NCBI RefSeq assembly: GCF_014172405.1
Contig: NZ_WNXC01000010.1
Coordinates: 1 to 64,000, forward strand
Direction of reading: 5' to 3'
Source of the DNA: Pedobacter gandavensis
GTDB lineage: Bacteria > Bacteroidota > Bacteroidia > Sphingobacteriales > Sphingobacteriaceae
DNA length: 64,000 bases
In this document: positions 1 through 27,963 of the stretch, piece by piece
How the letters are laid out: each line of letters opens with the position of its first letter
Position numbering within the stretch: position 1 is the first letter of the stretch
Notes under the pieces: generated by a model
The model's input: the letters and a program-made list of their open reading frames with translations, nothing else
Told to the model about the DNA's origin: nothing
Database searches by the model: none
Position numbers and translations under genes: made by a program

Positions 1-1
1 T

Positions 2-193
2 TTCAAGTCCTTCAATACCATTGCAAAGTCGATACAGAACCATTACCAAACTATATTAAATTACTTTGATCGTAGATCTACGAATGCTTCAGCGGAATCT
101 TTTAATGCAAAGATAAAGGCATTCAGATCGCAATTTAGAGGGGTGAAAAATATTGAATTCTTCCTTTTCAGGCTAACCCAGTTGTATGCATAA
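2..193 (+). mobile_element. C-terminal end of an IS transposase (cut by the window start)
   Basis: The reading frame is open from the window edge to a TAA at 191-193 and encodes 63 residues that look like the C-terminal end of a DDE transposase. Key segments are NYFDRRSTNASAESFNAKIK, with the conserved Asn/Glu/Asn pattern of the last catalytic region, and FRGVKNIEFFLFRLTQLYA. The style matches Bacteroidota ISAon1-like elements, but the exact family is uncertain. About 50 bp after the stop, the sequence changes abruptly into a recombinase remnant at 245. The IS therefore appears to have inserted into, and truncated, an older serine recombinase gene. Confidence 0.7.
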
Positions 194-244
194 AATCGAA
201 AAAAAGTATCAGTGCTCCACAAGTTTTGGGATTGATCCAAGAAA

Positions 245-436
245 ATCGACCCGACCTTCTGGCATAACCTGCAGAAGATCAATAAAAAAGGGTTGCTTTT
301 TTACGAGCAACCCTTTGATTCTTCGGACATCAGTCCGGTATGTACCGTCTCTCCGGATTACTTTGAACATTTAGATCGTTTTTTAAGGCTTATTGAGCCT
401 ATTATTAATGATTTAAGTGTCAAAGGTTTTATTTGA
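245..436 (+). pseudogene. 3' remnant of a second large serine recombinase, with its native C-terminal tail
   Basis: Positions 245-346 are nearly identical (about three mismatches in 102 bp by eye) to 27772-27873 in the intact recombinase and keep the same frame. They encode the segment IDPTFWHNLQKINKKGLLFY and on to DISPVCT. After the ACC codon at 344-346 the frame continues for 29 residues, VSPDYFEHLDRFLR then LIEPIINDLSVKGFI, to a TGA at 434-436. The rest of the gene is missing; the upstream sequence is an IS end. This shows what the C-terminus of the intact recombinase probably looks like before integration, and that a related element once sat to the left. Confidence 0.8.
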
Positions 437-14888: not shown

Positions 14889-15134
14889 GTTAATGAACGT
14901 TGTCTTAGATCAGCTCCACCTCATGGACACCTTTTTTTAGTCCTTGGGGTGGAAATATCCGATCTGCTGAGTACCAAATTTCGTCACAAAATATTCAGGT
15001 ATAAATCGAAAGTTCCGAAAATTAATATCTCAGGAATTGTCAAAACAATTATGAAGGATAACTGAAAACCATCATTATGATTGTAAATGCTCAGAAAAAA
15101 AACAAAACTATTACTAGTGGGAAGCCATCCATTT

Positions 15135-16142
15135 TTACTCTTTCGGGAGTATGACAATTCCAAACTCTTCTGCTATATCTCTTGCCATTTTTGATAGAAT
15201 TCTTTGATGATGATTATCAACGTTTAGAATATTTCCCATCAATAGATCCCAAACCTCATTCTCAGAGCTAAAAATCGATTTGTAGTCATAGTAAATTTCA
15301 CTAACGGTATTCTCAGAATAAACATGGGCCTTGGTGATGATATCCGATGCATAGTTTTTATGAAATTTATATCGATCCCTGATCAAAAAGCTCCCTAAGC
15401 TCGTTTCCGCCCTCTCTTTTAAACCGGGGTCTTTCGAATCATCATATAAAAACTCCAGTTCAAAATCTTTCTTGTGTACTAGGAAATCAACATCCGATAT
15501 ATTCGTTCTAAATTTCACAACACTCTCGACGCTTTCGAGCATTGGATGGATGTGGCTAGTAACCCTAAAGGGATCGCTTCCCTTTAAACTTGAATTACAG
15601 GTATAGCATGAGGGAATAAGATTGTAGAATGATAGCGCGAAATAAGGATGTGAGGCTTTGTCCAAGAAGTGATCTAAATGGGGACGAGCTTTTTTACCTC
15701 CTTTTTTTTTGATCGCAAAAGTGAACTGTGCATTGCAATATGGGCAGGTATTTAGCTTTAACTTGTCCACATGTTCATAAGCCAATCTACCCGAGATTCT
15801 TTTAGTAAATCCATAATCGTAGTCATAATTAAATACCTGAAAGATAATATTATTGAACCATTTCCTAACCTGAACTATGCTAAGCTGAGGATTACTTGTA
15901 ATATAGTTATTCTTAACCTCATTTGCGATCGGCTCGACCTCTGCTAATAGCTCCTCAAGCTTAGCAGGTCGCCCCATGATAAAATCATCAATACGAGGTA
16001 TGATATATGTGAATACCGGGGCAGCAAGCCCCATCAGTCCTTCTACAAGCTTATTCTTTACCCGAAGATACTTCTCTACATTTTCGAAATGTTCCACTGC
16101 CAGGGCATCCAGTTCTTCGATGCTTAATGGTGTCTTGATCAT
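15135..16142 (-). CDS. ptuB: HNH endonuclease, PtuB-like (Septu-like defence)
   Basis: This protein has 335 residues. The HNH/zinc core has two CxxC pairs: CPYCNAQFTFA near residue 135 and CYTCNSSLKGSDPF near 180. Between them lies the catalytic segment HLDHFLDKASHPYFALSFYN, then LIPS. This DHFLDKxxxP...NLxPxCxxCN pattern is typical of HNH proteins paired with AAA ATPases in Septu and of the same module in some retrons. Its ATG overlaps the stop of the upstream ATPase gene (ATGA, 16139-16142). No reverse transcriptase is nearby, so Septu is preferred over a retron. Confidence 0.75.
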   Translation of the reverse strand: MIKTPLSIEELDALAVEHFENVEKYLRVKNKLVEGLMGLAAPVFTYIIPRIDDFIMGRPAKLEELLAEVEPIANEVKNNYITSNPQLSIVQVRKWFNNIIFQVFNYDYDYGFTKRISGRLAYEHVDKLKLNTCPYCNAQFTFAIKKKGGKKARPHLDHFLDKASHPYFALSFYNLIPSCYTCNSSLKGSDPFRVTSHIHPMLESVESVVKFRTNISDVDFLVHKKDFELEFLYDDSKDPGLKERAETSLGSFLIRDRYKFHKNYASDIITKAHVYSENTVSEIYYDYKSIFSSENEVWDLLMGNILNVDNHHQRILSKMARDIAEEFGIVILPKE

Positions 16143-18001
16143 GGCTTTTTACCCTTCTCTTTCCTCAACACACGCAAACGCTCTAGAAGTATACTCTCTT
16201 CATCATTATTGAATTTCTCTATCCACATCCCCTGAAGCTTTCGTCTCAGAATCGGCTCTCCAATTAACGAAATAGTCTTTCTATAATCCTCCCGTGGAAC
16301 CGTCTTTTTCTTATCCTTAAGAAATTTGATGATATCATTGATTCTCTTTTTGGCAAAATCGCCCATCAGCACGCCGTCCATATAGAACGAATTGGCAAAC
16401 AGCTCATGGATATTTGCACCAAAGGTATTTCCCCTAATAACATCTTTTTCATGAATAATAATCTCACCAGTGGCCTTATTTCTTTCAAGGAATATAATAT
16501 GCGGATTGGTGAGATCGGAGGTCAGAAATGGTGTATTAGTGGTAAAAATCAATTGCACTGATCTCTTGTCAAAGATCTTTGATATAAACTTTATAGTATT
16601 GATAAAAAACTCCCTTTGCCATTCTGGATGAAACCCGGCATCTCCCTCATCGATCAGCAAAACAACAGTCTTTTTCAACTGAGCACCCTGTCCCTCAACC
16701 AATCCATAAATTCTTGAAAAAAAGGATAACATAGACTGCTGACCTGTGCTCAAATTACGCCATTTAAACTCCAGATAGCCCGATCTCCCTTTGGATTGAA
16801 GATAATGTACCATAAACTTTTCGAAGTCCTCCTCACTGTCTTTTCCAATCGGAAGCAGAAGTTTTCTATCCTTATTATCACTTGCGCTACCTGTTTTAAT
16901 TTTATTATCATAAACCATCTCTCCAACAATTTCCAATAATCGCAAGACTATTTTACATTTATTCTGGATGATTGGATTGCTCAACAATTCTCCATTACCC
17001 ATCCGATGATATACTATATTGGCAAAGAATATCTTAACTGTTTCCACAATAGTCAGCCCTCGAGGAAGCTTAAACTCCGACTCAGAATCACTATTTCGAA
17101 AATAGACATTCATATAAACGATGAAATTTGCAAGTACCAGAAGATGAAACTCGGCTATAATACTTCCATCCTCTTTAAGATCATCGATACCCTGAAGCGA
17201 ATCGTTAACAAACTTTATGATATCATTTCCTATCGTGAGTGGCTTCCTACCATCCTGACTATTCAAAAACCTTATATCCCTTCTATCAAAATAGATAATC
17301 AATTCTTCTGGCCTAGTAAATGGCAATTTGATATCTTTTCGATTAACCAAGAATAGCATCGTGTCCCCGATTTCGGATGCCATCAAGGCATCCAGGTTTG
17401 TAACATCTGCATTCGCTACCTCTTTAGTCGTTTTATCCCTATTGAAATGGGCGAAGTGGGCTTCCGCCAATAAGGCAGCTGTTGAAATATTCTTCAATCC
17501 TGTAAATGAGTTAACCTCTGTCTTATAATCCAGAAAAAAAGAGTAATATATATAATCCACATCGCTGAACTCCCCAAGGAGCTTTACTGGATCTCCTTCA
17601 GCGGCATTCTGATCATATTTTTTAGTTCTGAATAGGCCTGTCTCATCATCGAGATCTAGATCTATTGATGTCGGAGAAAGAACAATTAGTTCCTTTTTGT
17701 TCCCTGCACTATAGGCAAAAATATCCTCATTTATCATAGGGTTAATTCCACTTGGCAGACGATTTTTGATGTACTCGAGAATACTCGATTTACCCGTTCC
17801 ATTCTGACCAACAATCGTAGTGACATTAGAAATATTTTTAGCTTCGAAAAAGTTCGGAATATAATCAGGATTATACCCTATCCGAAGCTTTTTCCTACCT
17901 TCTTCTATTTCCGACATTTTAAATATAAATTGTGAGGATAAATTAATTCCTCTTTTCTTGAGAAAATTAAAATCATTTATCCAGATATAATGAAGTTCCA
18001 T
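16139..18001 (-). CDS. ptuA: AAA/ABC-type ATPase, PtuA-like (Septu-like defence)
   Basis: This protein has 620 residues. Walker A TTIVGQNGTGKSSILEYI lies near residue 61, an ABC signature-like NLSTGQQSMLSFFSRIYG near 420 and Walker B VVLLIDEGDAGFHPEWQREF near 448. A final RSVQLIFTTNTPFLTSDL resembles the switch His/Asn region. The long insertion (about 100-400) is lineage specific. It overlaps the HNH gene by 4 nt, the usual Septu layout. In this family the ATPase controls the HNH nuclease during infection. Confidence 0.75.
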   Translation of the reverse strand: MELHYIWINDFNFLKKRGINLSSQFIFKMSEIEEGRKKLRIGYNPDYIPNFFEAKNISNVTTIVGQNGTGKSSILEYIKNRLPSGINPMINEDIFAYSAGNKKELIVLSPTSIDLDLDDETGLFRTKKYDQNAAEGDPVKLLGEFSDVDYIYYSFFLDYKTEVNSFTGLKNISTAALLAEAHFAHFNRDKTTKEVANADVTNLDALMASEIGDTMLFLVNRKDIKLPFTRPEELIIYFDRRDIRFLNSQDGRKPLTIGNDIIKFVNDSLQGIDDLKEDGSIIAEFHLLVLANFIVYMNVYFRNSDSESEFKLPRGLTIVETVKIFFANIVYHRMGNGELLSNPIIQNKCKIVLRLLEIVGEMVYDNKIKTGSASDNKDRKLLLPIGKDSEEDFEKFMVHYLQSKGRSGYLEFKWRNLSTGQQSMLSFFSRIYGLVEGQGAQLKKTVVLLIDEGDAGFHPEWQREFFINTIKFISKIFDKRSVQLIFTTNTPFLTSDLTNPHIIFLERNKATGEIIIHEKDVIRGNTFGANIHELFANSFYMDGVLMGDFAKKRINDIIKFLKDKKKTVPREDYRKTISLIGEPILRRKLQGMWIEKFNNDEESILLERLRVLRKEKGKKP

Positions 18002-18021
18002 AATCTATTATGAGCGTTTAG

Positions 18022-18237
18022 TTATTTATTTGTTACTGGCATAAAATAGAGCGAACTTTTTAACTTTATCGTAATCGTATCGTTTATTCCACCCCGGACT
18101 GAGATCTTTTTTATAAAAAAGTCCATATTTTTGATCTCAATAGACTCCACTATTGTTAATGTATTCTTTTCAGCTTTAACGCAACAATACCAATGGAGAG
18201 TATTGCTACCTGCATATTCCGCTATATAGTTTACCAC
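18022..18237 (-). CDS. Doubtful 71-aa ORF overlapping repeat sequence
   Basis: A 71-codon frame with a GTG start lies 20 nt before ptuA. Its first codons fall inside the 24-bp tandem repeat at 18217-18260. The rest (HWYCCVKAEKNTLTIVESIE, then IKKISVRGG) has plausible composition. It may be a gene fragment fused to repeat sequence by an insertion rather than a functional gene. Confidence 0.25.
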   Translation of the reverse strand: MVNYIAEYAGSNTLHWYCCVKAEKNTLTIVESIEIKNMDFFIKKISVRGGINDTITIKLKSSLYFMPVTNK

Positions 18238-18260
18238 CCATTCCGCTACAAAGTTTACCA
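18217..18260. repeat. Two 20-bp repeats with 24-bp period, possible IS21-type end
   Basis: TTCCGCTATATAGTTTACCA (18217-18236) and TTCCGCTACAAAGTTTACCA (18241-18260) are direct repeats differing at two or three positions. Read on the minus strand they give TGGTAAACTTTGTAGCGGAA-like units, reminiscent of the multiple terminal repeats of IS21-family elements. No transposase is present, so this would be a solitary end left after decay. Confidence 0.4.
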
Positions 18261-18287
18261 GTGTTCCGAGGGAATCAACTACTTGGC

Positions 18288-18449
18288 CTAATTTAAAGAA
18301 AACACCTCATGGACCTGTGTTCTCAGAAGATAAGGATATCGAGTCTTATGTTTGAGTTTTTCCTCGGAATCCAACCCTTCACGAATGAAACTTGCCAAAG
18401 CACGCAACATATATGGAATATCTTTAGGGGACTCCTCATTATCGATAGT
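18288..18449 (-). pseudogene. Detached C-terminal coding segment of HamB
   Basis: These 53 codons plus TAG continue the hamB frame directly after its stop. The encoded sequence is protein-like (IPYMLRALASFIREGLDSEE, LLRTQVHEVFSLN), and a stop-free run of this length is unlikely by chance in AT-rich DNA. It ends about 27 bp from the IS21-like repeat. Confidence 0.5.
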
Positions 18450-21446
18450 TTAATCCCTTATAACTAAGGAAATTACTCCGAAAATAAAACTCAAATTCGG
18501 AATAAGCTTAAGACAAAAGCTTCGCGCTTTATCCAAATTATCATCCGAATTGCCTGAAATAAGAATCTGAATCCTGTAATAGTCCTTTCCATTGATATAC
18601 GCCAATAGCAAATCCTTGATGCCACTCATCTTAGTAAAGATAATTTCCTCGGTTGCCTTATTGATGGGAATATTAAGTGCTTTAGCCAATTGTGCATGAA
18701 TAGCATTTCCTGTAAAGAAACTAAATATGCGCTCCTGTTTTTCACAAAGCCAGTCCATTACCTCATCAATTATCTCATCTAAGGTCATCTCACCTAGCTC
18801 TACAATTCCAACGTCATTTACAAAATTACCGACTTCAATCACAAATTGTGGATCTAAGCCCATTTTCAGGCTCACCCGCCCTACCCAATCTTCATTGACA
18901 TATTCACCATCTACTTCCGTTCTCACCACAATTAACTTCTGAACTTTCTCCGCATATGATTCTTCCTGGCTGTCTTTAAAGGCTCTATATTTACCAAATG
19001 ACTTATCAAAGATAGTATTGATCGAATTCTCTGTATCAGGTATCAGGTTTAACCTAAATATAACATTCTTCTGTTCCGCGGTCAATTTCGTGCTATCTGA
19101 TGAGAGATTGTCCAAAAAACCTATAAGTGGGTCATTGATTTTCAAACACTGGTCGCTACTAGAGAATACTGTCTCCTTGAGCTCCCACCATTTTTGAGAA
19201 ACCGTATTATCTTTATAATGGATCAGCTTGCCCGGGATCAACAACACCATCCCCTGGGCTGCAGACCCAGCCCTACCTGCCCTACCTGCAGCATTCAGTA
19301 TTTCCTGTGGATCTATGGTCTCACGATAGCCAGTATCCTCATCAAAGCGGTCATCACCAGCCATGATCACCACCTCAGCGGGAAGATTGATACCTTGGGC
19401 TAGGGTAGCTGTAGCAACTACAACATTGATTCCGTCCTTTCGCTTGAAATAGTTCTCATTAAGCCTTCGCTCCAATGGCAACATATTCCCATGATGTACT
19501 GCGGTTCTGCCATTTGAAACAAACGAATATTTTATATCTCCTAATTCCAATGCCAGAGCTTCAAACATCTGAGGATATTTATCCATAAGATCAGTACGCT
19601 GGAAAGTAACATCCTCTAACTTAGCAGATATTTTTCGAGATGTACTTTTGGTAATTCTAGGATCGTCGACAAAAACCAGTGTTTTTATATTTCGACTGGC
19701 AAAATAGGAAGCGAATTCCGCTGCCACCTCGTTTCTATTACTTGTAAGTTTCCAATCACTATTTGCACTTAAATTAACAGGCTGAGTCAATATTCTATTG
19801 ATATAATAATCATCACTCGATTTGGATTCCCATTTATTTCTCAAACTGAAAAAGGTAAAGGGAACTGCTTGCAACTCTCTTTTTACCGCTGCACTAGGAC
19901 CTGAACTAGTACTATCTTTACGTGCTTTCCTTAAAACACCCTCCAATTTTACAATATCCTCTTCACGATACATCAAGCAGCTATGCAATTGCCTTGTTGG
20001 CTTCCAAGATGAATCAAATGCTACACACTCTCTTTTGGTAACTGAAGAAATCCACTCCGCAATCTCCGGTCCATTTTCGACCATTGCCGAAATCAGTAGA
20101 TAATCCGCATATGGTGCCTCAGCGAATAGTCTGAGCAGACAGAACATCGCATCAATGCTCCTCCTATCTTTCTTTTCTTCTCTTCCATGCACTAGGTGAA
20201 ACTCGTCAAAAACGACTAGTCCCACATCGGCAAACTCTTCTGGCCTGACGCTTATCAGCGTTAAGCACTTCTCGGGCGTCATTACTGCGATGCTTGGAAG
20301 CGCACTATCTTCAATATCAGTATACTCAAGATCGAATTCCATTATTGACTCGGGAATAAACCCTTCAAATATTCTTAGCATATTGCTATTTGCCTGATCC
20401 TCTAAAGCATGAGTAGGCACAAGATAAATCACCCTTTTTCCCGCAAGGAGAGTTGATGATATCTTTAACTCAGCAAGCGTGCTCTTCCCTGCACCAGTTG
20501 GAAAAGTAAGTACGGCAGAACACCCAGTATTAAGGAAGTTTGTTTTCACTGCATCAAAATGGTTCTCCCAAAGATAGGGTCGCTCTTTTGCTATACGGGC
20601 GAGAAATGTACCCCACAATTCTGCATCAGTATTAACCGGGGGTGAAACCTTTACAATCCCTCTCAACAGTAAGTCATCCCTTAATATATCGAGGAGCTTA
20701 GCCAAATGATAAGGTCCAGCATAAAGGCTCTCCTTCTCAAAAAGGCTTTCATATTCAGGATCAAATACAGACAGTTCTATTACCGTCTTGAAATAATCCG
20801 TCTTATCTTTGGCAAAATTAGGATCAAATAGTTCCTCAGCTAGTTGTTTGACCCCATTAAGTAAACATTCCCATAGATAATCAATTGCCTCCCTTTCCGA
20901 TTCATCAGCTTCATACTCAATATCCGGAACAGACAGATTGACTATATGTGACATCTCGCCTTTTGCCAAATGCACGATTGCACGCATCAGAAGCGATTCA
21001 ATTCGATCATCTATCAGATCCCGCTTTGCAAACCTGGAGGCTTCACAAGCGTCTGCAGGACTATTTCCAATGAGAAAAAGAACCATTGCTGAAATGACCT
21101 CTGGAATCTGGTCTCTTCCAAACATCACCGATACCAGCTCAGGCTCAGAATATTCTCTTATCTGCAGTAGCAGATACCTGGCCGTTGCGCAAACAAAAGC
21201 TATTGACCTCTTATTTTCCAAATCCGGCAAAATTACCGCCAAGGTTTCCAGATTATTTGCAAGCGAACGTAACATATCAATGCTTGCTGCGAGAGCATCC
21301 TTTTCAAAACTCCCATTAGACAGATTACTTCTGACTGAAATAACTACTGCATATATTCTAGTTAACTCCTGTGGCAATCTTTCTATATCTATGCTACCAA
21401 CCTTAGGGATCGATCTAATATTTTCCTCTGTTATCGAATTATACAT
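18450..21446 (-). CDS. hamB: HamB-like superfamily 2 helicase (Hachiman-like defence), probably cut short by a stop codon
   Basis: This 998-residue Ski2-like helicase has motif I LTFPTGAGKSTLAEL (near residue 318), Ia YLVPTHALEDQ, II VVFDEFHLVHGREE (near 410), III LLISAMVENGPEI, V VVVATATLAQGINLPAEV (near 675) and VI LNAAGRAGRAG. It begins 1 nt after hamA. The same frame continues after the TAA (18450-18452) for 53 more codons to a TAG at 18288-18290, encoding DIPYMLRALASFIREGLDSE and KLKHKTRYPY. That looks like a helicase C-terminus, so the TAA is probably a nonsense mutation and the intact protein would have about 1,052 residues. Confidence 0.8.
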   Translation of the reverse strand: MYNSITEENIRSIPKVGSIDIERLPQELTRIYAVVISVRSNLSNGSFEKDALAASIDMLRSLANNLETLAVILPDLENKRSIAFVCATARYLLLQIREYSEPELVSVMFGRDQIPEVISAMVLFLIGNSPADACEASRFAKRDLIDDRIESLLMRAIVHLAKGEMSHIVNLSVPDIEYEADESEREAIDYLWECLLNGVKQLAEELFDPNFAKDKTDYFKTVIELSVFDPEYESLFEKESLYAGPYHLAKLLDILRDDLLLRGIVKVSPPVNTDAELWGTFLARIAKERPYLWENHFDAVKTNFLNTGCSAVLTFPTGAGKSTLAELKISSTLLAGKRVIYLVPTHALEDQANSNMLRIFEGFIPESIMEFDLEYTDIEDSALPSIAVMTPEKCLTLISVRPEEFADVGLVVFDEFHLVHGREEKKDRRSIDAMFCLLRLFAEAPYADYLLISAMVENGPEIAEWISSVTKRECVAFDSSWKPTRQLHSCLMYREEDIVKLEGVLRKARKDSTSSGPSAAVKRELQAVPFTFFSLRNKWESKSSDDYYINRILTQPVNLSANSDWKLTSNRNEVAAEFASYFASRNIKTLVFVDDPRITKSTSRKISAKLEDVTFQRTDLMDKYPQMFEALALELGDIKYSFVSNGRTAVHHGNMLPLERRLNENYFKRKDGINVVVATATLAQGINLPAEVVIMAGDDRFDEDTGYRETIDPQEILNAAGRAGRAGSAAQGMVLLIPGKLIHYKDNTVSQKWWELKETVFSSSDQCLKINDPLIGFLDNLSSDSTKLTAEQKNVIFRLNLIPDTENSINTIFDKSFGKYRAFKDSQEESYAEKVQKLIVVRTEVDGEYVNEDWVGRVSLKMGLDPQFVIEVGNFVNDVGIVELGEMTLDEIIDEVMDWLCEKQERIFSFFTGNAIHAQLAKALNIPINKATEEIIFTKMSGIKDLLLAYINGKDYYRIQILISGNSDDNLDKARSFCLKLIPNLSFIFGVISLVIRD

Positions 21447-21447
21447 T

Positions 21448-22238
21448 TTAGGACTTTAGGGTTTTAAGATATGTGGCTACTTTAGGACAAAAATTATCCA
21501 TCCATTGACGAATATCGGATTGGTAAAAAGTAAGACTATTCCTTCTGACCACATCAGTTCCTTTTACCATTTTGTCATAGTCCTTGAACAACTTAGGTCG
21601 CCAAACCTGATTATTAGTATTATTTTTAGGCGTTATAGCTACTCTATATTTCCTAATCTCTGGACGATAAATATCAGCATTAATGGACGTCAAAAGCTGT
21701 GATGGATCTAGATGATGAAGCATGTATGTTATTCGACTAACCAATTGAATATTATGCGTTCCTTCTTCAAATTTCGCAAAATCTGGCCATACCTGGAGTC
21801 TTACAGTCTCCCTAGCATTTTCAGTATATTTATCCTCTGAGATGATCACCTGCTCAAGATTGTTATCGTCTTTCAGCAACACAGCAATCCCATCGATTCC
21901 ATGCTGGGCGGGAGCATCATGAGGTAACTGAACAAAGAATTTTCTTCCAATATGCTCTTGGTTAATAGCGACCCAATTGATCATTTGATATACCCAGCCA
22001 TCCCTTTTATATCTTTCCTCATTTGAGTTATAACTCAACCTTTCTATTGCTAGGTCAATTGCGCGATTATTACTTGATGGTTTGATGTTTTTTTTTTTGC
22101 TAAGATTTGCTGGACATGCAAATGATTTCCCAACAAAAGATATGCAACATTCTGAACGAGCTTATCCTCATCGCCAACCTCCAATTCAACTTCATTATGC
22201 ATTGGAGAATAATCAACATGTGTAAGTTTTACAGGCAT
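21448..22238 (-). pseudogene. hamA: HamA-like nuclease (DUF1837, Hachiman-like), frame broken at an A11 run
   Basis: Two frames together make one HamA-like protein. Frame 1 starts at the ATG at 22238 (MPVKLTHVDYSPMHNEVELE) and ends at 22050. Frame 2 runs from about 22055 to 21448 and carries the nuclease core: HGIDGIAVLL (Asp near residue 116) and VIISEDKYTEN (Glu-x-Lys near 135-137), a PD-(D/E)xK pattern. They meet at a run of 11 T on the plus strand (22088-22098). Adding one base, or removing two, restores a single protein of about 263 residues through KKKNIKPSSNNRAIDLAIER. It lies 1 nt before hamB. Options are mutation, phase variation, transcriptional slippage or sequencing error. Confidence 0.75.
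22088..22098 (-). repeat. A11 homopolymer inside hamA
   Basis: Eleven consecutive A on the coding strand lie exactly where the hamA frame breaks. Runs of this length slip readily in replication and in transcription. Confidence 0.85.
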
Positions 22239-22697: not shown

Positions 22698-23216
22698 CTA
22701 GACAAGTTTTCTTCTTGAATATAAGTTAGTTGATTGTTTATTTGGATGTGGCTGTATTTCTATGAGATCTGACATTCTTTTTAATGCCGCATGCAGAGAA
22801 TTTCCTTTAAGCGTCCAGCCGTATTTATCATTAAAGAACTTTATGATCTGATTCGTTTCTTTCGGTAAATCAAGGAAATTAGTCTTAAGAAGCTTATATT
22901 TTATACAGTAAGGTATAGAAGGTTCTTCATTTAAAATTACGAATACAGATGGCTCAATCTTATACTTTTCCATTAGCCTTTCACGTAAATTCTTAGGAGG
23001 AGTAAAAGACTCTTTACTTAAATCTTCTAATTTAATTGAGGTAAAATTCAGGATTCCATCTAGGCTGCTAATTTTGAAATTATTTCTTCCAGATTCTATG
23101 TTCCCTAAGGTTGTTCTCGAAATATTTGCAAGCAAAGCGAAGTCCTTCTGAGAAAGGCCCAAAGCATCTCTTAGCTCCAATATGTTAGTACTAAGCATTG
23201 ATATTGAATTGTCCAT
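22698..23216 (-). CDS. XRE-family transcriptional regulator
   Basis: The frame opens at 23300, but its first 28 residues are an odd hydrophobic run. The ATG at 23216 (MDNSISMLSTNILELRDALG) places the helix-turn-helix at the N-terminus as usual (172 residues). The HTH reads LRDALGLSQKDFALLANISR then TTLGNIESGRNNFKISSLDG. The C-terminal 100 residues are helical and unrecognised. It faces away from the sigma/dCas12f operon and could regulate it, the Hachiman-like genes, or both. Confidence 0.75.
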   Translation of the reverse strand: MDNSISMLSTNILELRDALGLSQKDFALLANISRTTLGNIESGRNNFKISSLDGILNFTSIKLEDLSKESFTPPKNLRERLMEKYKIEPSVFVILNEEPSIPYCIKYKLLKTNFLDLPKETNQIIKFFNDKYGWTLKGNSLHAALKRMSDLIEIQPHPNKQSTNLYSRRKLV

Positions 23217-23372
23217 CAAACAAATGGACAACACTAAATCGTGATATTTTGAAAGACTTATTGTGTAATTAAAAACAATTAAGTAAATTTGAATCATCAT
23301 TGATTTGATGATAGATAAGAAATAAAAAAGATTAAGGCATTAGTTTACAAGAAGAGGTATTAATAAAAAAGA

Positions 23373-23577
23373 GTCTCGGTTACAAATTCCGACAATTTGA
23401 ATCAGAACGAGACGATAGATCTAATGCCCATAGTGAATATATATGTACTTTTGTACCGCTATAGCACTATGGGCTCTATCGTAAACCGTTTTTGAAGGCG
23501 TCGGAACCTTGTAGCACGGTGATAGGGCCCGCTATAGTATTTGCATCTGTCATAATTGGACTCGTATAAACTACGAG
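23373..23577 (+). ncRNA. Strongly structured leader upstream of the sigma gene
   Basis: Four good hairpins follow one another. GTCTCG (23373-23378) pairs with CGAGAC (23408-23413). CGATAG plus CCCATAGTG (23413-23418, 23427-23435) pairs with CACTATGGG plus CTATCG (23465-23473, 23476-23481). ACCGT and AAGG (23485-23489, 23495-23498) pair with CCTT and ACGGT (23507-23510, 23516-23520). CTCGTA pairs with TACGAG (23561-23566, 23572-23577), ending 1 nt before the sigma ATG. This density of stems indicates a functional RNA or leader. It may control sigma translation or be a second guide-type RNA. Confidence 0.55.
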
Positions 23578-23578
23578 C

Positions 23579-24382
23579 ATGAAAAGTACCAAAGTAACCG
23601 ACAGGCAGTATTATTTTAACATCTTCCAGGAAGGCAATGAAAAAGGGCTTGAGTTTTTTTACAAGCTCTTATATCCAGCTTTATATATTAGAGGATTAAG
23701 ATATATAAAGGATGACATCAATGCTGATTGTATTGTTAATGACGCATTTCTCAGGCTCTGGCTAATCAGAGAAACTATTATTGACCCAGCTCACATTGAA
23801 ACATTTGTTAAAAAATGGACTTCAGATGGCTGCAAAGCTTATTACAGAACTTCAGATACCAAATTTCAGCGAAACATGTTGAAACTGGATGACCTAGAAA
23901 ATTATCAGGAATATATCGGTGGTTACAACCCTTGGGAAGAAGAAGATACAGATGTTCTATACCAACAAGAGCTTGACGAAAATATGCGCAAGCAATGGGA
24001 ACAAGTAGAAAATGTACTCCCAAACCTTCCCGAAAATCAACAGTTATTCATCAGGCTCTGCATCAAATATTCATTTAGTTATGAACGTATTGCTTGGCAT
24101 GTTGGTGGAATCTCAGACTATCAGGTCGCTAGAACAATTGAAAAAACACTGCAATCTCTAAAATCCATTTTAACGAATAGCCAAAAGCTCAACGTTGTAG
24201 GAAAAACAAACAATTACAAGTTCGAAGGTGATCTCTGCGAAGAACAATCTACAATTCTGAACATGCGCTATGAGCTTCAATACAGCTTTGAAGAAATTGC
24301 CAGAACATTAAACCTAAGCCAAAGCTATATCCAAAAAGTTTTTGTTCAGGCCTATACCAAGATAAAAAAGGTAAAAATCTAA
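23579..24382 (+). CDS. ECF-like sigma factor with two sigma-4-type HTH regions, paired with a Cas12f-like protein
   Basis: This protein has 267 residues. Residues 14-90 match ECF region 2: FQEGNEKGLEFFYKLLYPAL, then RYIKDDINADCIVNDAFLRLW. Residues 148-195 match region 4 (LPENQQLFIRLCIKYSFSYER then IAWHVGGISDYQVARTIEKT). A second region-4-like HTH follows at 220-262 (QSTILNMRYELQYSFEEIAR then TLNLSQSYIQKVFVQAY). A duplicated region 4 is unusual for an ECF sigma. The stop is 4 nt before the next ATG, so it is co-translated with the Cas12f-like protein. No anti-sigma gene is adjacent. It would recruit RNA polymerase core to sites chosen by its partner; this role is inferred from context and from reports, as I recall them, of sigma factors paired with inactive Cas12f homologues in Bacteroidota. 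Confidence 0.8.
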   Translation: MKSTKVTDRQYYFNIFQEGNEKGLEFFYKLLYPALYIRGLRYIKDDINADCIVNDAFLRLWLIRETIIDPAHIETFVKKWTSDGCKAYYRTSDTKFQRNMLKLDDLENYQEYIGGYNPWEEEDTDVLYQQELDENMRKQWEQVENVLPNLPENQQLFIRLCIKYSFSYERIAWHVGGISDYQVARTIEKTLQSLKSILTNSQKLNVVGKTNNYKFEGDLCEEQSTILNMRYELQYSFEEIARTLNLSQSYIQKVFVQAYTKIKKVKI

Positions 24383-24386
24383 TGCT

Positions 24387-25484
24387 ATGGAAAATAACAC
24401 AATGATTATCACCCGCAAGATCCAGCTACTGATCGATTCTGATGACAGTCAATACGTCAGAGACATCAAAGACAAGCTATTCAATTGGCAATCGATTTGT
24501 TTTCGGTCGGCCAACATGATTATGAGCCACCACTTTGTACAGGAACAGGTAAAAGACTTCTTTTACTTAACAGATGAAATCATTCTTAAAATTGCTGATG
24601 AAAAAAAAGAACCAAACGGCATACTCAAGTCTTCCAGAATAAACACTACCTACCGCCTGCTTTCTAATCATTTTAAAGGACATATTCCAACCAACATCCT
24701 GAGCAACTTAAATAACACATTGTTAGCTACCTTTAACAAAGAGAGAGTTGCCTATTGGAAAGGTGAAAAATCGCTGAGAAATTACAAAAAAAATATTCCT
24801 ATGCCTTTTGCTGCAGAAGCGATCACAAAATTAGATCATGCTCCTGATAACAAAAACTTCTGCTTTAAGCTCTTTCAAATTCCCTTCAGAACCTTTCTGG
24901 GCAAAGATACAGCTGATAAAAAAATCCTTCTGAATAGAATAAAGAATGGGACAATAAAACTCCGCACCAGCCACATCCAGTTAGATAAGGGTAAAATATA
25001 TTTTCTGGCGGTGATTCAAATTGAAAAAGAGCAACATGATTTAGACACCGCAGTAATTGCCGAAGCTACTCTTTCCATAGAACATCCGGTAAATGTTAAA
25101 ATTGGAGATCAGCAATACGCCATAGGGAATAAAGAGGAATTTCTACATAGAAGGTTAGCTATACAGGCAGCCATTCTCAGGGTAAAGAAAGGAATTACCT
25201 TTAATCGTGGTGGCCATGGGGAGAAAAGAAAGAAGAAATGCCTTGTAGACTATCAGAATAATGAAAAAAAATACGTTGAATACAAATTGCATGTCTATAG
25301 CCGTCGATTGATTGATCTTTGTATAAAACATCAGGCTGCCACTTTAATCCTGGTCAATCAACAACAAAAAGAAGAAATAGCAAAAGAGGATCCGTTCTTA
25401 CTTCAAAATTGGAGCTATTATAGCCTAAAGGATAAAATAAATTACAAAGCAGAGAAAGCCGGAATTCAGGTAATTATTGAATAA
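24387..25484 (+). CDS. Nuclease-dead Cas12f/TnpB-like RNA-guided protein
   Basis: This protein has 365 residues. The C-terminal half keeps Cas12f/TnpB landmarks: the basic stretch GGHGEKRKKKCLVDYQNNEK (near 275-294), SRRLIDLCIKHQAATLILV (near 305-323) and NWSYYSLKDKINYKAEKAGI (near 341-360). The catalytic triad is missing. RuvC-I reads LSIEHPVNVKIG in place of GIDLG, the RuvC-II Glu position reads LVNQQ, and the protein stops before the zinc finger and RuvC-III Asp. It should bind RNA and DNA but not cut. It sits 4 nt after an ECF sigma gene and 10 bp before two guide-RNA-like elements. No IS605/IS607 ends or partner transposase are present, which favours a domesticated regulator over a transposon gene. 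Confidence 0.8.
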   Translation: MENNTMIITRKIQLLIDSDDSQYVRDIKDKLFNWQSICFRSANMIMSHHFVQEQVKDFFYLTDEIILKIADEKKEPNGILKSSRINTTYRLLSNHFKGHIPTNILSNLNNTLLATFNKERVAYWKGEKSLRNYKKNIPMPFAAEAITKLDHAPDNKNFCFKLFQIPFRTFLGKDTADKKILLNRIKNGTIKLRTSHIQLDKGKIYFLAVIQIEKEQHDLDTAVIAEATLSIEHPVNVKIGDQQYAIGNKEEFLHRRLAIQAAILRVKKGITFNRGGHGEKRKKKCLVDYQNNEKKYVEYKLHVYSRRLIDLCIKHQAATLILVNQQQKEEIAKEDPFLLQNWSYYSLKDKINYKAEKAGIQVIIE

Positions 25485-25494
25485 AGAATTTAAA

Positions 25495-25604
25495 GAGGCT
25501 GCTTGTAAAGCCGCATGGTGAGACAAAAAATGTACTCACTAATATTCATTTCATGGGTAATCACTCTTAAAAGAATAATACAACAGCCGGGCCTACTTTT
25601 AATC
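25495..25604 (+). ncRNA. Candidate guide RNA 1 (scaffold plus guide)
   Basis: The scaffold starts GAGGCTGCTTGTAAAGCCG (hairpin GGCT/AGCC) and continues GGTGAG...CTCACT (25517-25540, second hairpin). A TATTC...GAATA stem (25543-25578) follows, and it ends in ATACAAC (25578-25584). Unique sequence then begins AGCCGGGCCTACTTTTAATC (25585-25604), the proposed guide. Copy 2 shares the scaffold but has a different 3' sequence. Ends of the form ..CAAC directly before the guide are typical of Cas12f-type RNAs. Exact RNA ends are unknown. Confidence 0.6.
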
Positions 25605-25659
25605 ATATTTCAATGGGCAGGTAAAAAGAAAAATTGAAGAATATAATGAACATATAATT

Positions 25660-25749
25660 GAGGCTGCTTGTAAAGCCGTAGGGTGAGATCAAATGATATG
25701 CTCACTAAAATAGTTAGAAATTATACAACGGGCTGCTGTTATTCCATTT
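25660..25749 (+). ncRNA. Candidate guide RNA 2 (scaffold plus guide)
   Basis: This is a second copy of the scaffold: GAGGCTGCTTGTAAAGCCG (25660-25678), GGTGAG...CTCACT (25682-25706), an AATAGTT/AAATTAT stem, then ATACAAC (25723-25729). The following unique sequence GGGCTGCTGTTATTCCATTT (25730-25749) is the proposed guide. CTGCT near its start and AGCAG at 25754-25758 could fold into a weak terminal stem. Confidence 0.6.
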
Positions 25750-26149: not shown

Positions 26150-26371
26150 TTGCTGAAAACAGTGTTTATGACAGCAATAAAGGAAAATCCAAAAATCATC
26201 AAACCAGAAATAACCTTGATACCAGACGAAGGGTACATACTTGATTTTTTGCCCTTGCCAGTTCAAAAAGTACTGGAAAAAAGCGAATATAAATTTAGTC
26301 AAAGTGAGCAGGTGTTATTGACTTTATTCGCACAAATTATAATTGAAATCATATTAAAAGAGGAATCATGA
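26150..26371 (+). CDS. Small protein coupled to the recombinase
   Basis: This protein has 73 residues (67 if translation starts at the ATG at 26168, MTAIKENPKIIKPEITLIPD). It is helical at the C-terminus (EQVLLTLFAQIIIEIILKEE). Its stop overlaps the recombinase start (ATGA at 26368-26371), so the two are translationally coupled. By position it could be an accessory or directionality factor for the recombinase, but it has no recognised HTH. Confidence 0.55.
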   Translation: MLKTVFMTAIKENPKIIKPEITLIPDEGYILDFLPLPVQKVLEKSEYKFSQSEQVLLTLFAQIIIEIILKEES

Positions 26372-27963
26372 ACGCTATTGGATACCTAAGATTAAGTACT
26401 AAAGACCAATCAAAATCTTTAGAATACCAGGAATCGACGGTTCGGGAATATTGCCGAAGAAATAACTTAAATATAATTGCGCTATTTAAAGATAACGGAG
26501 AAGACAGCTATACCTTCGACCGGCCAGATTATCGTGCACTAGAGATCTTCTTAAAGAAGTTTAAGGGAGAATGTCAATACCTCATTGTACTGGATCACGA
26601 TCGTTTCAGCCGTAATCTACCTGAAGCTTTAATGAAAATTGCAGATCTGGAAAGCAATCATGGTGTAAAGGTACTATCCACAAATGAACGCGTAGATCTG
26701 GATACATCTGATCCAGATGTTTTCATGAAAAGGGCATTTGATTACATGATTGCCAACAAAGAGCTATTCACTATCCGTAACAGAACAAGGCAAGGGATAA
26801 GAAATGCTAAAGAAAACGGACGCTATCTTGGACGTGCGCCTTATGGCTATAAAAACACTAATGATGGCTCAAAAAAGAACCATATCCATATCGATCAGAA
26901 CCAAGCCGTTATTGTGGAAAGAATATTTAATGATTACCTGCTTGGCATTGCTCCTTACATCATCTATAAAACAGTTAGAGCTATGGGATTCTCCAACAAA
27001 GGAAACAGTGCCATTCATGATATATTGAACAACTGCCTCTACGCAGGATTAATTAGAGTCCCCGCCCTAAAAGATTTACCAGAAAAGTATGTAAAGGGCA
27101 TCCATAAGCCAATAATCACCGAAGCTGAATACTGGACCGCAAACAAAATGCTCAGCAACAAACGACCGGAAAAAGTACGTCCCGACGAAGACTTCCCCTT
27201 AAGAGGCGTTTTAAAATGCTGGTGCGGACAAAGTATGACTGCGGGATGGTCAAAAGGCCGAAAACAATATTACCTGTACTATAGATGCCATATCCATAAC
27301 AATGTGAATGTACCAGGTAAACTTTTGCATGAACAATTTGACGAAGTCCTTAAAGACATTTGCTTTGAACCGCAGCAGGTAGAATTTCTACAGCTCGCAG
27401 CCAAAGCACTACTAGCTGAACCTCTAAAACAAAAGCAGGAAAGATTAAAAGAAAAACTGAATGCGATCAGCGCGGTTAACGTCAAAATTCTGGAGCTGGA
27501 AGAGAAATTCATGAATAATCAGATCGAAAACACAACTTATCAGACCTGGTTTAAGAAATACAAAGAGGAAAAAGCATCCTTGGAAATGAGCCTAAAAGGA
27601 AATCCTAAATCAAAAATAGAAATTGACAGTCTGATTGATCGGATTCTGCCCTCTCTTACCAATCTTTTTGAGATCTATGAAAAATGTAACATCTTCCAAA
27701 AACATGCGATTGTAAGGGGGGTGTTCAAAGATAATCTGGTATGGGCAGGGGGTCTACTTAGAACCGCTTTTATCGACCCGACCTTCCGGCATAACCTGCA
27801 GAGGATCAATAAAAAAGGGTTGCTTTTTTATGAGCAACCCTTTGATTCTTCGGACATCAGTCCGGTATGTACCCGGAGCCGGAGTCGAACCGGCACGGTT
27901 TCCCACAGGTGTTTGAGACCAGCGCGTCTACCAATTCCGCCATCCGGGCATTTCCTTCGTTAG
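26368..27963 (+). CDS. Large serine recombinase (integrase of the island)
   Basis: This protein has 531 residues. The resolvase domain starts AIGYLRLSTKDQSKSLEYQ with the nucleophile Ser10 and includes LIVLDHDRFSRNLPEALMK. A Recombinase domain follows near 165-275 (GRYLGRAPYGYKNTNDG). A zinc ribbon (LKCWCGQSMTAGWSKG, YRCHIHNN) and a coiled coil near 350-430 complete the family layout. At Thr502 (ACC, 27871-27873) the frame enters the tRNA-Leu gene, so residues 503-531 are antisense tRNA (RSRSRTGTVSHRCLRPARLP then IPPSGHFLR). The remnant at 245-436 shows a different 29-residue tail after the same Thr, which the circular form would encode. It is probably responsible for insertion at the tRNA gene. 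Confidence 0.85.
   Translation: MNAIGYLRLSTKDQSKSLEYQESTVREYCRRNNLNIIALFKDNGEDSYTFDRPDYRALEIFLKKFKGECQYLIVLDHDRFSRNLPEALMKIADLESNHGVKVLSTNERVDLDTSDPDVFMKRAFDYMIANKELFTIRNRTRQGIRNAKENGRYLGRAPYGYKNTNDGSKKNHIHIDQNQAVIVERIFNDYLLGIAPYIIYKTVRAMGFSNKGNSAIHDILNNCLYAGLIRVPALKDLPEKYVKGIHKPIITEAEYWTANKMLSNKRPEKVRPDEDFPLRGVLKCWCGQSMTAGWSKGRKQYYLYYRCHIHNNVNVPGKLLHEQFDEVLKDICFEPQQVEFLQLAAKALLAEPLKQKQERLKEKLNAISAVNVKILELEEKFMNNQIENTTYQTWFKKYKEEKASLEMSLKGNPKSKIEIDSLIDRILPSLTNLFEIYEKCNIFQKHAIVRGVFKDNLVWAGGLLRTAFIDPTFRHNLQRINKKGLLFYEQPFDSSDISPVCTRSRSRTGTVSHRCLRPARLPIPPSGHFLR
27851..27873 (+). other. Right attachment junction: inverted repeat plus TACC core at the tRNA 3' end
   Basis: CGGACATCAGTCCG (27851-27864) is followed by GTATG and the TACC core (27870-27873). 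From TACC onward the sequence is tRNA-Leu. The same inverted repeat and core occur at 330-346, where TACC is instead followed by the repeat R1. The shared TACC is the minimal crossover core that can be deduced. Confidence 0.7.
27870..27949 (-). tRNA. tRNA-Leu(CAA)
   Basis: On the minus strand an 80-nt tRNA starts GCCCGGATGGCGGAATTGGT and ends TCCGGGT plus discriminator A. The acceptor stem pairs over 7 bp, with a G-U at the end. The T arm is GCCGGTTCGACTCCGGC. The anticodon loop CTCAAAC gives anticodon CAA. CCA is not encoded. The second anticodon-stem pair is T-T (CTGGT/ACCTG). The last bases of the tRNA (GGTA, complement of TACC) are the integration core of the island. Confidence 0.9.

What the first reader, a model, noticed from the sequence alone, without database searches (positions are those of the whole stretch)
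23579..25749. Sigma factor plus nuclease-dead Cas12f-like protein plus guide-RNA copies: a likely RNA-guided transcription activator
An ECF-like sigma gene and a Cas12f/TnpB-like gene are 4 nt apart. The Cas12f-like protein lacks all RuvC catalytic residues (LSIEHP instead of a GIDLG motif, LVNQQ instead of the Glu motif, truncated before RuvC-III). Two guide-RNA-like elements follow directly. No transposon ends or second transposase are present. The simplest reading is that the guide brings the complex to a promoter and the sigma brings RNA polymerase. I recall reports of inactive Cas12f homologues paired with ECF sigma factors in Bacteroidota; this locus sits in a mobile defence island, a different setting from nutrient-uptake genes.
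Basis: partly seen in the sequence, partly recalled or inferred. Interest (0 to 1): 0.95.

Follow-up and report, generated by a model that had tools for sequence, protein, structure and literature searches.

The report
RNA-guided sigma factor, island-borne, with targets
This Pedobacter locus is a member of a recently solved family in which a dead Cas12f uses a guide RNA to place a sigma factor at chosen promoters; one of its two guides points at the control region of a nutrient-uptake operon, and guides of several relatives point at the same kind of hairpin-rich control region.

Summary
In detail: sigma gene 23579-24382, Cas12f-like gene 24387-25484, then two guide-RNA units ending at 25604 and 25749. 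It is a member of a known family: the Cas12f-like protein aligns end to end with the solved 'nuclease-deactivated Cas12f' (PDB 9n9c, E 5e-133), the sigma with its RpoE partner (9n9q, E 6e-41). 95 of 399 same-family genomes carry a homologue. Guide 1 has no target found. New here, as far as my searches reach: guide targets in Pedobacter and Flavobacteriaceae lie in palindromic leaders, on one strand of a hairpin that can also pair with a downstream, terminator-like segment. With a G required in front, 63 of 24,656 guide-by-leader comparisons matched, all at that position (shuffled guides: 3). The sigma operon carries such a leader; in 14 of 78 loci a guide matches its own operon's leader. Leaders of the window's type also occur in 12 of 20 genomes without dCas12f, so they are not exclusive to it. 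The locus ends a 27.6-kb tRNA-Leu island with Gabija. Activation and attenuator bypass are inferred.

The parts
22698..23300 (-). Divergent Cro/C1-type (XRE) regulator gene
   Evidence: HTH_3 E 2.8e-10. 9 of 10 chosen genes in the same place beside related leaders are also HTH proteins.
23371..23563 (+). Palindromic control leader of the sigma-dCas12f operon (type A), from GAGTCT to GGACTC
   Evidence: Folds better than all 200 shuffles: z -5.3 as RNA, -3.8 as DNA (taken on 23366-23580). Covariance models R1/R2 find it and its relatives; 32-row alignment covaries.
23413..23435 (+). Leader segment 1, pairs with segment 2
23446..23453 (+). TACTTTTG, a match to the Bacteroidetes -7 motif TANNTTTG (motif recalled), in the loop
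   Evidence: TANNTTTG in the loop of 23 of 38 type A leaders, 1.5 expected from mononucleotide shuffles
23464..23482 (+). G plus segment 2, the position at which guides of relatives match related leaders; neither guide of this locus matches it well (none of its candidates reached 12 of 17)
23521..23537 (+). Leader segment 3, complementary to segment 2 (terminator-like stem, without a clean T run in this copy)
   Evidence: 13-bp stem, coordinates
23579..24382 (+). ECF-like sigma factor, homologue of RpoE in PDB 9n9q
24387..25484 (+). Nuclease-dead Cas12f, homologue of PDB 9n9c/9n9m/9n9q
25495..25604 (+). Guide RNA unit 1; guide 25585-25604, no target found
   Evidence: targets sought
25660..25749 (+). 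Guide RNA unit 2; guide 25730-25749, candidate target: the SusC operon leader at G000:C11:83174-83193 (minus strand)
26368..27963 (+). Serine recombinase, its 3' end overlapping tRNA-Leu (27869-27949, minus)
   Evidence: Resolvase E 2.7e-24, tRNA
245..346 (+). Left 102-bp direct repeat of the island
   Evidence: 97% identical to 27772-27873
27772..27873 (+). Right 102-bp direct repeat of the island, abutting tRNA-Leu

Best explanation
This is a dCas12f-sigma RNA-guided transcription system. The two downstream units are made as guide RNAs; dCas12f with a guide opens DNA at a site next to a G; the partner sigma brings RNA polymerase, which starts downstream of the opened site. Guide 2 is aimed at the leader of a SusC-SusD-thioredoxin operon elsewhere in the genome. 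Target leaders are palindromic: segment 1, an ordinary promoter in the loop (type A), segment 2 (the guide target) and segment 3, which can pair with segment 2 as a terminator-like stem. A transcript from the ordinary promoter carries segments 2 and 3 and could stop early; a guided start beyond segment 2 leaves that stem out and reads into the genes. The sigma operon carries the same kind of leader, so it belongs to the same control circuit; in Flavobacteriaceae a guide, mostly the first, matches its own operon's leader (self-activation). Shown by sequence: homology, inactive RuvC, covarying guide scaffold, guide-leader matches, covarying leader stems. Inferred: RNA binding, activation, start site, attenuation and its bypass.
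For: Solved homologues of both proteins and best fold match to the dCas12f-gRNA-DNA complex. Guide scaffold covariation. Guide-to-leader matches of at least 10 exact bases, a G in front required: 63 of 24,656 comparisons (368 guide candidates from 24 dCas12f loci x 67 leaders), all 63 on the + strand at segment 2, against 3 of 24,656 with shuffled guides. Without requiring the G: 85 matches of at least 10 (63 G, 12 A, 7 T, 3 C in front), 47 of at least 12 (45 G, 2 T). Window guide 2: 11 exact, 14 of 18, in the genome's own SusC leader, and 17 of 18 in three leaders of other Pedobacter genomes (L175, L176, L196). Other same-genome pairs: G281 12 exact, 16-17 of 18, at two leaders, one before a TonB-plug receptor gene; Yeosuana marina 16 exact bases at its own operon and 10 exact, 16 of 18, at the leader of a TonB-plug receptor gene. 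Own-operon matches of at least 14 of 17: 14 of 983 guide candidates in 78 loci, shuffled 1 of 983. SusC by TIGR04056 E 7e-149 and 4e-153, SusD by Pfam. Segment 2-3 stem: type B paired in 99.5% of cells of 20 rows.
Against: Guide 1 has no target in the genome or in any of 67 leaders (best 11 of 16). The guide 2 match is contiguous for only 11 bases. Neither window guide matches its own operon's leader. Type A leaders occur in 14 of 21 genomes with dCas12f and 12 of 20 without, so they do not depend on it. 56 of the 63 matches are between genomes, and leaders and guides are related within the genus, so the matches are not independent. Without the G rule 12 matches of 10 or more have A in front, 10 of them at segment 2. 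Many type A segment 3 copies, the window's included, lack a clean T run, and 5 of 38 best stems are below 9 bp. The guides in the solved system's own genome (L075 against G400 leaders) gave no match of 10 or more. In type B the 34-pair segment 1 structure is mixed: 84.2% paired and covariation score above all 500 shuffles, but the number of pairs changed on both sides (226 of 500 shuffles reach it) and of further pair types (472 of 500) do not exceed shuffles.
Confidence: 0.72

Rival explanations
1. The proteins are a working dCas12f-sigma pair but this copy's guides are decaying or aimed elsewhere (another host, plasmid or island), so the SusC match is a relic.
For: Guide 1 has no target; guide 2 fits leaders of other species better (17 of 18) than its own genome's (14 of 18); the locus lies in an island bounded by direct repeats beside a recombinase.
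Against: Guide 2 is 11 exact bases at the one leader position used throughout; both guides are largely kept in P. panaciterrae O48, guide 2 at 19 of 20 (read); both protein ORFs are open and full length.
Confidence: 0.3
2. dCas12f works as an RNA-guided repressor (TldR-like) at these leaders, blocking the ordinary promoter; the sigma has a separate task.
For: The targets follow closely on a TANNTTTG promoter-like motif in many type A leaders (23 of 38).
Against: 75 of 84 sequences have an ORF of at least 200 aa ending within 200 nt before dCas12f, as the sigma does here (not each was tested as a sigma); the homologous sigma shares a PDB entry with dCas12f.
Confidence: 0.12
3. The leaders are operators or attenuators served only by the neighbouring XRE regulator; guides resemble segment 2 because they were copied from it and do nothing there.
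For: Divergent HTH genes next to 9 of 10 chosen leaders; leaders in 12 of 20 genomes without dCas12f.
Against: Matches start directly at the repeat end, lie on one strand at one position, and without a rule on the base in front 45 of 47 matches of 12 or more have G there; but that base is itself conserved in the leaders.
Confidence: 0.15
4. An IS200/IS605 remnant: TnpB-like gene with chance neighbours.
For: TnpB profile NF040570 matches weakly (E 1.6e-8, below its cut-off).
Against: End-to-end homology to dCas12f, conserved upstream ORF; no tnpA-like gene recognised by eye in the ORF list (not searched by profile).
Confidence: 0.02

Closest known systems
dCas12f-sigma RNA-guided transcription, PDB 9n9c, 9n9m, 9n9o, 9n9q (reported by the Sternberg and Chang groups, 2025: recalled, papers not held)
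   Same: Both proteins align over nearly full length; no RuvC motif; guide scaffold with stems GGNTG/CANCC and GTGAG/CTCAC; G next to the target. The printed RpoE residues equal those of the sigma in L075 (Allomuricauda taeanensis) as far as both are shown.
   Different: 51-55% identity in dCas12f; Pedobacter host; end of a defence island beside a serine recombinase; two single guide units; type A rather than type B leader.
TldR, TnpB-like nuclease-dead repressors
   Same: Dead RuvC nuclease turned into an RNA-guided regulator.
   Different: TldR comes from TnpB and represses (recalled; a passage in PMC13418256 calls them TnpB-like nuclease-dead repressors); this one is Cas12f-like and is paired with a sigma.
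Type V-F CRISPR-Cas12f
   Same: Fold and guide RNA plan; Cas12f profiles match.
   Different: RuvC dead and truncated; no regular CRISPR array, only two scaffold-plus-guide units.
Transcription attenuators (terminator/antiterminator leaders)
   Same: Three segments of which the middle one can pair with either neighbour.
   Different: Here the middle segment is also the DNA target of guide RNAs; no Rfam match in the window's leader or six sampled loci.

Membership tests
dCas12f-sigma RNA-guided transcription | Nuclease-dead Cas12f homologous to the solved dCas12f | tested here: met
   E 5e-133, residues 3-364 of 365; Asp to Thr, C-terminus missing; fold
dCas12f-sigma RNA-guided transcription | Adjacent sigma homologous to the partner RpoE | tested here: met
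   E 6e-41, residues 13-263; 4 nt apart
dCas12f-sigma RNA-guided transcription | Conserved guide RNA scaffold followed by a variable guide | tested here: met
dCas12f-sigma RNA-guided transcription | Genomic target with 5'-G upstream of a gene | tested here: inconclusive
   Guide 2 met with 11 exact bases; guide 1 not met
dCas12f-sigma RNA-guided transcription | Protein binds the guide RNA and recruits RNA polymerase | not testable with these tools
   Needs RIP-seq, ChIP-seq or reconstitution
Type V-F CRISPR-Cas | Intact RuvC | tested here: not met
Type V-F CRISPR-Cas | Regular repeat-spacer array | tested here: not met
   Two copies 165 nt apart, 78% identical
TldR repressors | Closer to TnpB than to Cas12f | tested here: not met
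   dCas12f best by far, TnpB profile below cut-off
Transcription attenuator (for the leader) | Mutually exclusive stems | tested here: met
   Type A: segment 1-2 stems covary (on an alignment fitted to the model); best stem between segment 2 and downstream of at least 9 bp in 33 of 38, where 23% of shuffles reach 9. Type B: segment 2-3 99.5% paired, segment 1-2 mixed
Transcription attenuator (for the leader) | T run after the terminator stem | tested here: inconclusive
   Present in most flavobacterial rows of type B (by eye), absent in the window's copy and in many type A copies

The most novel reading that the evidence does not exclude
A portable RNA-guided sigma factor acts as a trans key to a pre-existing lock: a dispersed family of XRE-linked palindromic leaders in which the ordinary promoter is followed by an attenuator whose first terminator strand is the guide target. 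Guided initiation starts beyond that strand and so bypasses the attenuator. The same lock sits on the key's own operon, which gives a self-amplifying switch for SusC-SusD expression that travels on defence islands.
Probability: 0.33. Interest if true: 0.82.

Novelty: new member of a known kind. Interest (0 to 1): 0.6.

Why it matters
RNA-guided transcription by dCas12f-sigma is young (recalled), and I found no description of native regulons in the papers I could search. This locus gives a concrete native guide-target candidate in an environmental genus, and its relatives suggest a rule: guides are aimed at one segment of a conserved leader. That makes three questions directly testable: what the system controls, whether it controls itself, and whether it works by jumping over an attenuator. 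It also shows the system at the end of a defence island with exchanged cargo, so a guide set may move between strains whose SusC leaders it can address. The leaders, found also without dCas12f and matched by no Rfam family in the searches made, are a regulatory element worth describing on their own.

Tried and rejected
Guide matches at 2-3 mismatches elsewhere in the genome (L003, L118-L121, L123-L133): all 16 lie inside an ORF of at least 100 codons, as does the one other hit (the site of L133); treated as chance. 14-base exact repeats between the guide region and the rest of 84 sequences: most were unrelated repeats; the useful signal was the flavobacterial own-operon site. Guide class GCCGGGGYATGC, a relative of guide 1: 2 of 15 genomes, one being the gRNA itself, the other inside an ORF. 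The conserved G000/G344 hits GCTCTATTGTAATTCCTCAT lie inside an ORF and were dropped. Guides in viral contigs: 0 for guide 1, 1 for guide 2, at the end of a reading frame, taken as chance. Plasmids: 5 records, distant TnpB-like hits only. Viral contigs: 3 relatives of dCas12f at 41-49% identity. Idea that leaders mark dCas12f genomes: not supported, 14 of 21 with against 12 of 20 without (my notebook entry gives 15 and 11, a miscount). Idea of invertible promoters: considered, not tested. The readings of minus-strand loci were in the wrong orientation and were redone. Papers: five searches on this system, one on TldR, one broad and one on SusC leaders listed no paper on dCas12f-sigma or on these leaders; the library holds no preprints and few subscription papers, so this says little about what is in print. 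Passages only were seen of PMC13418256, PMC12250444 (dCas12f as an engineering tool) and PMC12857756 (one passing mention of Cas12f).
Full report
WHAT IS THERE. A 267-aa sigma gene (23579-24382) and a 365-aa Cas12f-like gene (24387-25484) are 4 nt apart on the + strand. Two direct repeats follow at 25480 and 25645, each carrying the stems GGCTG/AGCC and GTGAG/CTCAC and ending in ATACAAC and a guide. In 84 sequences examined (83 fetched loci plus the window), a script with a strict motif filter found 85 such scaffold copies in 52. In 22 rows that I chose the stems are paired in 99.1% of cells, with 9 cells changed on both sides (shuffled mean 1.6).

WHAT IT IS. Against the PDB, the Cas12f-like protein's best match is 'Nuclease-deactivated Cas12f' (9n9c and three more entries), E 5.5e-133 over residues 3-364; active Cas12f nucleases follow at E 6e-37 and weaker. 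The sigma's only strong match is RpoE of 9n9q, E 6e-41. In the alignment to an active Cas12f the VGVDLG motif is AEATLS and the C-terminal part is missing; AEA.L is invariant in 20 homologues aligned. An AlphaFold2 model (mean pLDDT 78, pTM 0.63, residues 57-81 poor) matches best the solved dCas12f-gRNA-DNA complex 9n9m (E 3e-38, TM 0.75) and next 9n9c; Cas12f nucleases follow. 95 of 399 genomes of the same family hold a match at E 1e-10. 80 loci with organism names were fetched, among them Pedobacter, Mucilaginibacter, Sphingobacterium and Flavobacteriaceae (300 stretches encoded a relative, the best 80 were kept); the closest are Pedobacter. The printed RpoE residues agree with the sigma of L075, Allomuricauda taeanensis. 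The recalled literature names dCas12f-sigma as RNA-guided transcription with a 5'-G next to the target; I could not read those papers here.

WHERE THE GUIDES POINT. First clue: in 78 loci with an upstream ORF of at least 180 codons, 983 guide candidates were compared with the 300 bp upstream of their own sigma gene, both strands, G in front required. 14 reached at least 14 of 17 bases, against 1 of 983 shuffled guides. The 14 loci are L064, L065, L066, L071, L073, L083, L084, L091, L092, L093, L104 and L106-L108; by their genus names they are Flavobacteriaceae (recalled; two genera looked up). In 13 of the 14 the guide lies 79-90 nt after dCas12f, that is in the first unit. Second clue: a Pedobacter guide class GCTCTATTGTAATTCCGTT matches intergenic sites in other Pedobacter genomes, several before SusC-like genes. 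Those sites lie in a leader of about 190-205 bp that resembles the region upstream of the window's sigma gene.

THE LEADERS. The window's leader, 23371-23563, was folded within 23366-23580 and folds better than all 200 shuffles (z -5.3 as RNA, -3.8 as DNA). A covariance model from 10 copies (R1) found 25 matches in 13 of 22 same-genus genomes. A second model (R2) from 32 rows found 51 in 26 of 41. On the 32-row alignment 88.9% of cells pair, with 114 cells changed on both sides against 36.6 shuffled; slid structures pair in 30-43% (that alignment was fitted to the model, which favours it). A second, related leader type (B), built from 20 copies (R3), occurs in 8 of 21 dCas12f-bearing same-genus genomes and in all 4 flavobacterial genomes searched, two copies in each of the latter. 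There one copy precedes the sigma-dCas12f operon; in three of the four the other precedes a gene with TonB plug and CarboxypepD_reg domains, in G402 a second sigma gene. Type B was not sought in genomes without dCas12f. In type B the target segment pairs in 99.5% of cells with a downstream segment, which in most flavobacterial rows runs into a T run (by eye). In type A the best stem between the segment 2 region and the stretch downstream averages 13.0 bp against 7.8 with that stretch shuffled (mononucleotide shuffles); 33 of 38 are at least 9 bp, which 23% of shuffles also reach; TANNTTTG stands in the loop of 23 of 38, 1.5 expected (the 38 are those of the leaders found that had been fetched as loci). 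36 of the 38 have a divergent ORF in reach, and 9 of 10 chosen ones are Cro/C1-type HTH genes. No Rfam family matches the window's leader or six sampled loci.

GUIDE AND LEADER MEET AT ONE PLACE. 368 guide candidates from 24 dCas12f loci were compared with 67 leaders (38 type A, 28 type B, one more upstream region): 24,656 comparisons. 63 have at least 10 exact bases from the guide start behind a G (the G was required); all 63 lie on the + strand at segment 2. Shuffled guides under the same rule gave 3 of 24,656. A rerun without the G rule gave 85 matches of at least 10 bases (63 with G in front, 12 A, 7 T, 3 C; 76 on the + strand) and 47 of at least 12 (45 G, 2 T); the two with T lie off segment 2, and 10 of the 12 with A are flavobacterial guides at segment 2 of Pedobacter type B leaders. 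56 of the 63 are between genomes, 7 within one. Within-genome pairs: window guide 2 with the leader at G000:C11 (11 exact, 14 of 18); two dCas12f loci of G281 with two leaders each (12 exact, 16-17 of 18); Yeosuana marina with its own operon (16 exact) and with the leader of a TonB-plug receptor gene (10 exact, 16 of 18). Guides and leaders are related to one another within the genus, and the base in front is conserved in the leaders, so the 63 are not independent events; the constancy of strand and position is the stronger point.

THE WINDOW'S REGULON. Its genome has three type A leaders: before the sigma-dCas12f operon, at C14:170205-170346 and at C11:83140-83281, and no type B. From the target in the C11 leader it is 330 nt to the start of a 1065-aa SusC (TIGR04056 E 7e-149), followed by a SusD gene (SusD-like_3 E 4e-27) and a thioredoxin-domain gene. 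By my arithmetic about 0.00014 such matches (12 fixed bases) are expected for two guides in three leaders. The C14 leader precedes a 154-aa gene, an ECF-sigma-like gene, another SusC (E 4e-153) and a SusD gene (E 6e-39); no window guide matches it, but a guide of P. cryoconitis (L035) does for 16 bases. Guide 1 found nothing: three genome searches gave only ORF-internal or own-locus hits, and the best leader match is 11 of 16. Its counterpart in P. panaciterrae O48 keeps the core GCCGGGCCTACTTT, so it is probably not noise.

HOW IT MAY WORK. Segment 2 can pair with segment 1 or with segment 3. A transcript from the loop promoter holds segments 2 and 3; a guided transcript starts downstream of segment 2 (start site tens of bases beyond the opened DNA: recalled) and lacks segment 2. 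This predicts that guided transcription escapes an attenuator. The step is inferred. Against it: several segment 3 copies, the window's too, lack a T run, and type B segment 1 pairing is only partly supported. Leaders of type A occur in 14 of 21 genomes with and 12 of 20 without dCas12f, so they must have a life without it, perhaps with the XRE regulator.

SETTING. 102-bp direct repeats, 97% identical, at 245-346 and 27772-27873 bound about 27.6 kb; the right copy is the 3' end of the serine recombinase at tRNA-Leu. Inside are GajA/GajB (E 6e-282, 3e-232), a PDC-M62 pair and a HamB-like helicase. In P. panaciterrae O48 (L034) the alignment to the window starts at 23559, at the leader's end, and runs through sigma, dCas12f, guides, recombinase, tRNA-Leu and core genes (80% identity); left of it stand a different leader and regulator and a Druantia-like DruE. 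So in these two strains the sigma-dCas12f-recombinase end is kept while leader, regulator and defence cargo differ.

VERDICT. A new member of a known kind, with a native candidate target. The guide-leader rule and the attenuator idea are what I would follow up; whether either is already in the 2025 papers I could not check.

Noticed in passing
window 10882-22038: Defence cluster: GajA/GajB (Gabija), PDC-M62A/B pair, HamB-like helicase with a small partner gene (21448-22038) that matches no PADLOC model.
   Followed up: partly
window 245-346 and 27772-27873: 102-bp direct repeats, 97% identical, made of the 3' end of the serine recombinase gene; island boundaries, possibly of stacked islands.
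   Followed up: partly
window 1-195: End of a transposase-like reading frame just left of the left repeat (by eye, not searched).
   Followed up: no
L192 (G000:C14:162000-176500): The second SusC leader lies near coupling-protein-like and relaxase-like genes (by eye), so this SusC operon may ride on a conjugative element.
   Followed up: no
L222, L223, L242: Type B leaders before ECF-sigma-like genes without dCas12f (L222 tested by Pfam; the others by eye), so the leader family may serve other regulators too.
   Followed up: partly
L035 5299-7064, L115: Long guide clusters: ten scaffold copies in L035 with extra AATTTGAAAGGTATATACAAC-type repeats between some of them; L115 (viral contig) has repeats about 66 nt apart like a regular array.
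   Followed up: no
L168, L173, L187, L203: A family of about 430-aa proteins beginning MK(A/T)K.ITIAGK.LS.FY.LPLEKGSRVL or similar directly after type A leaders, function not looked up.
   Followed up: no
window 25585-25604: Guide 1: conserved core in two species, no target found anywhere searched.
   Followed up: yes
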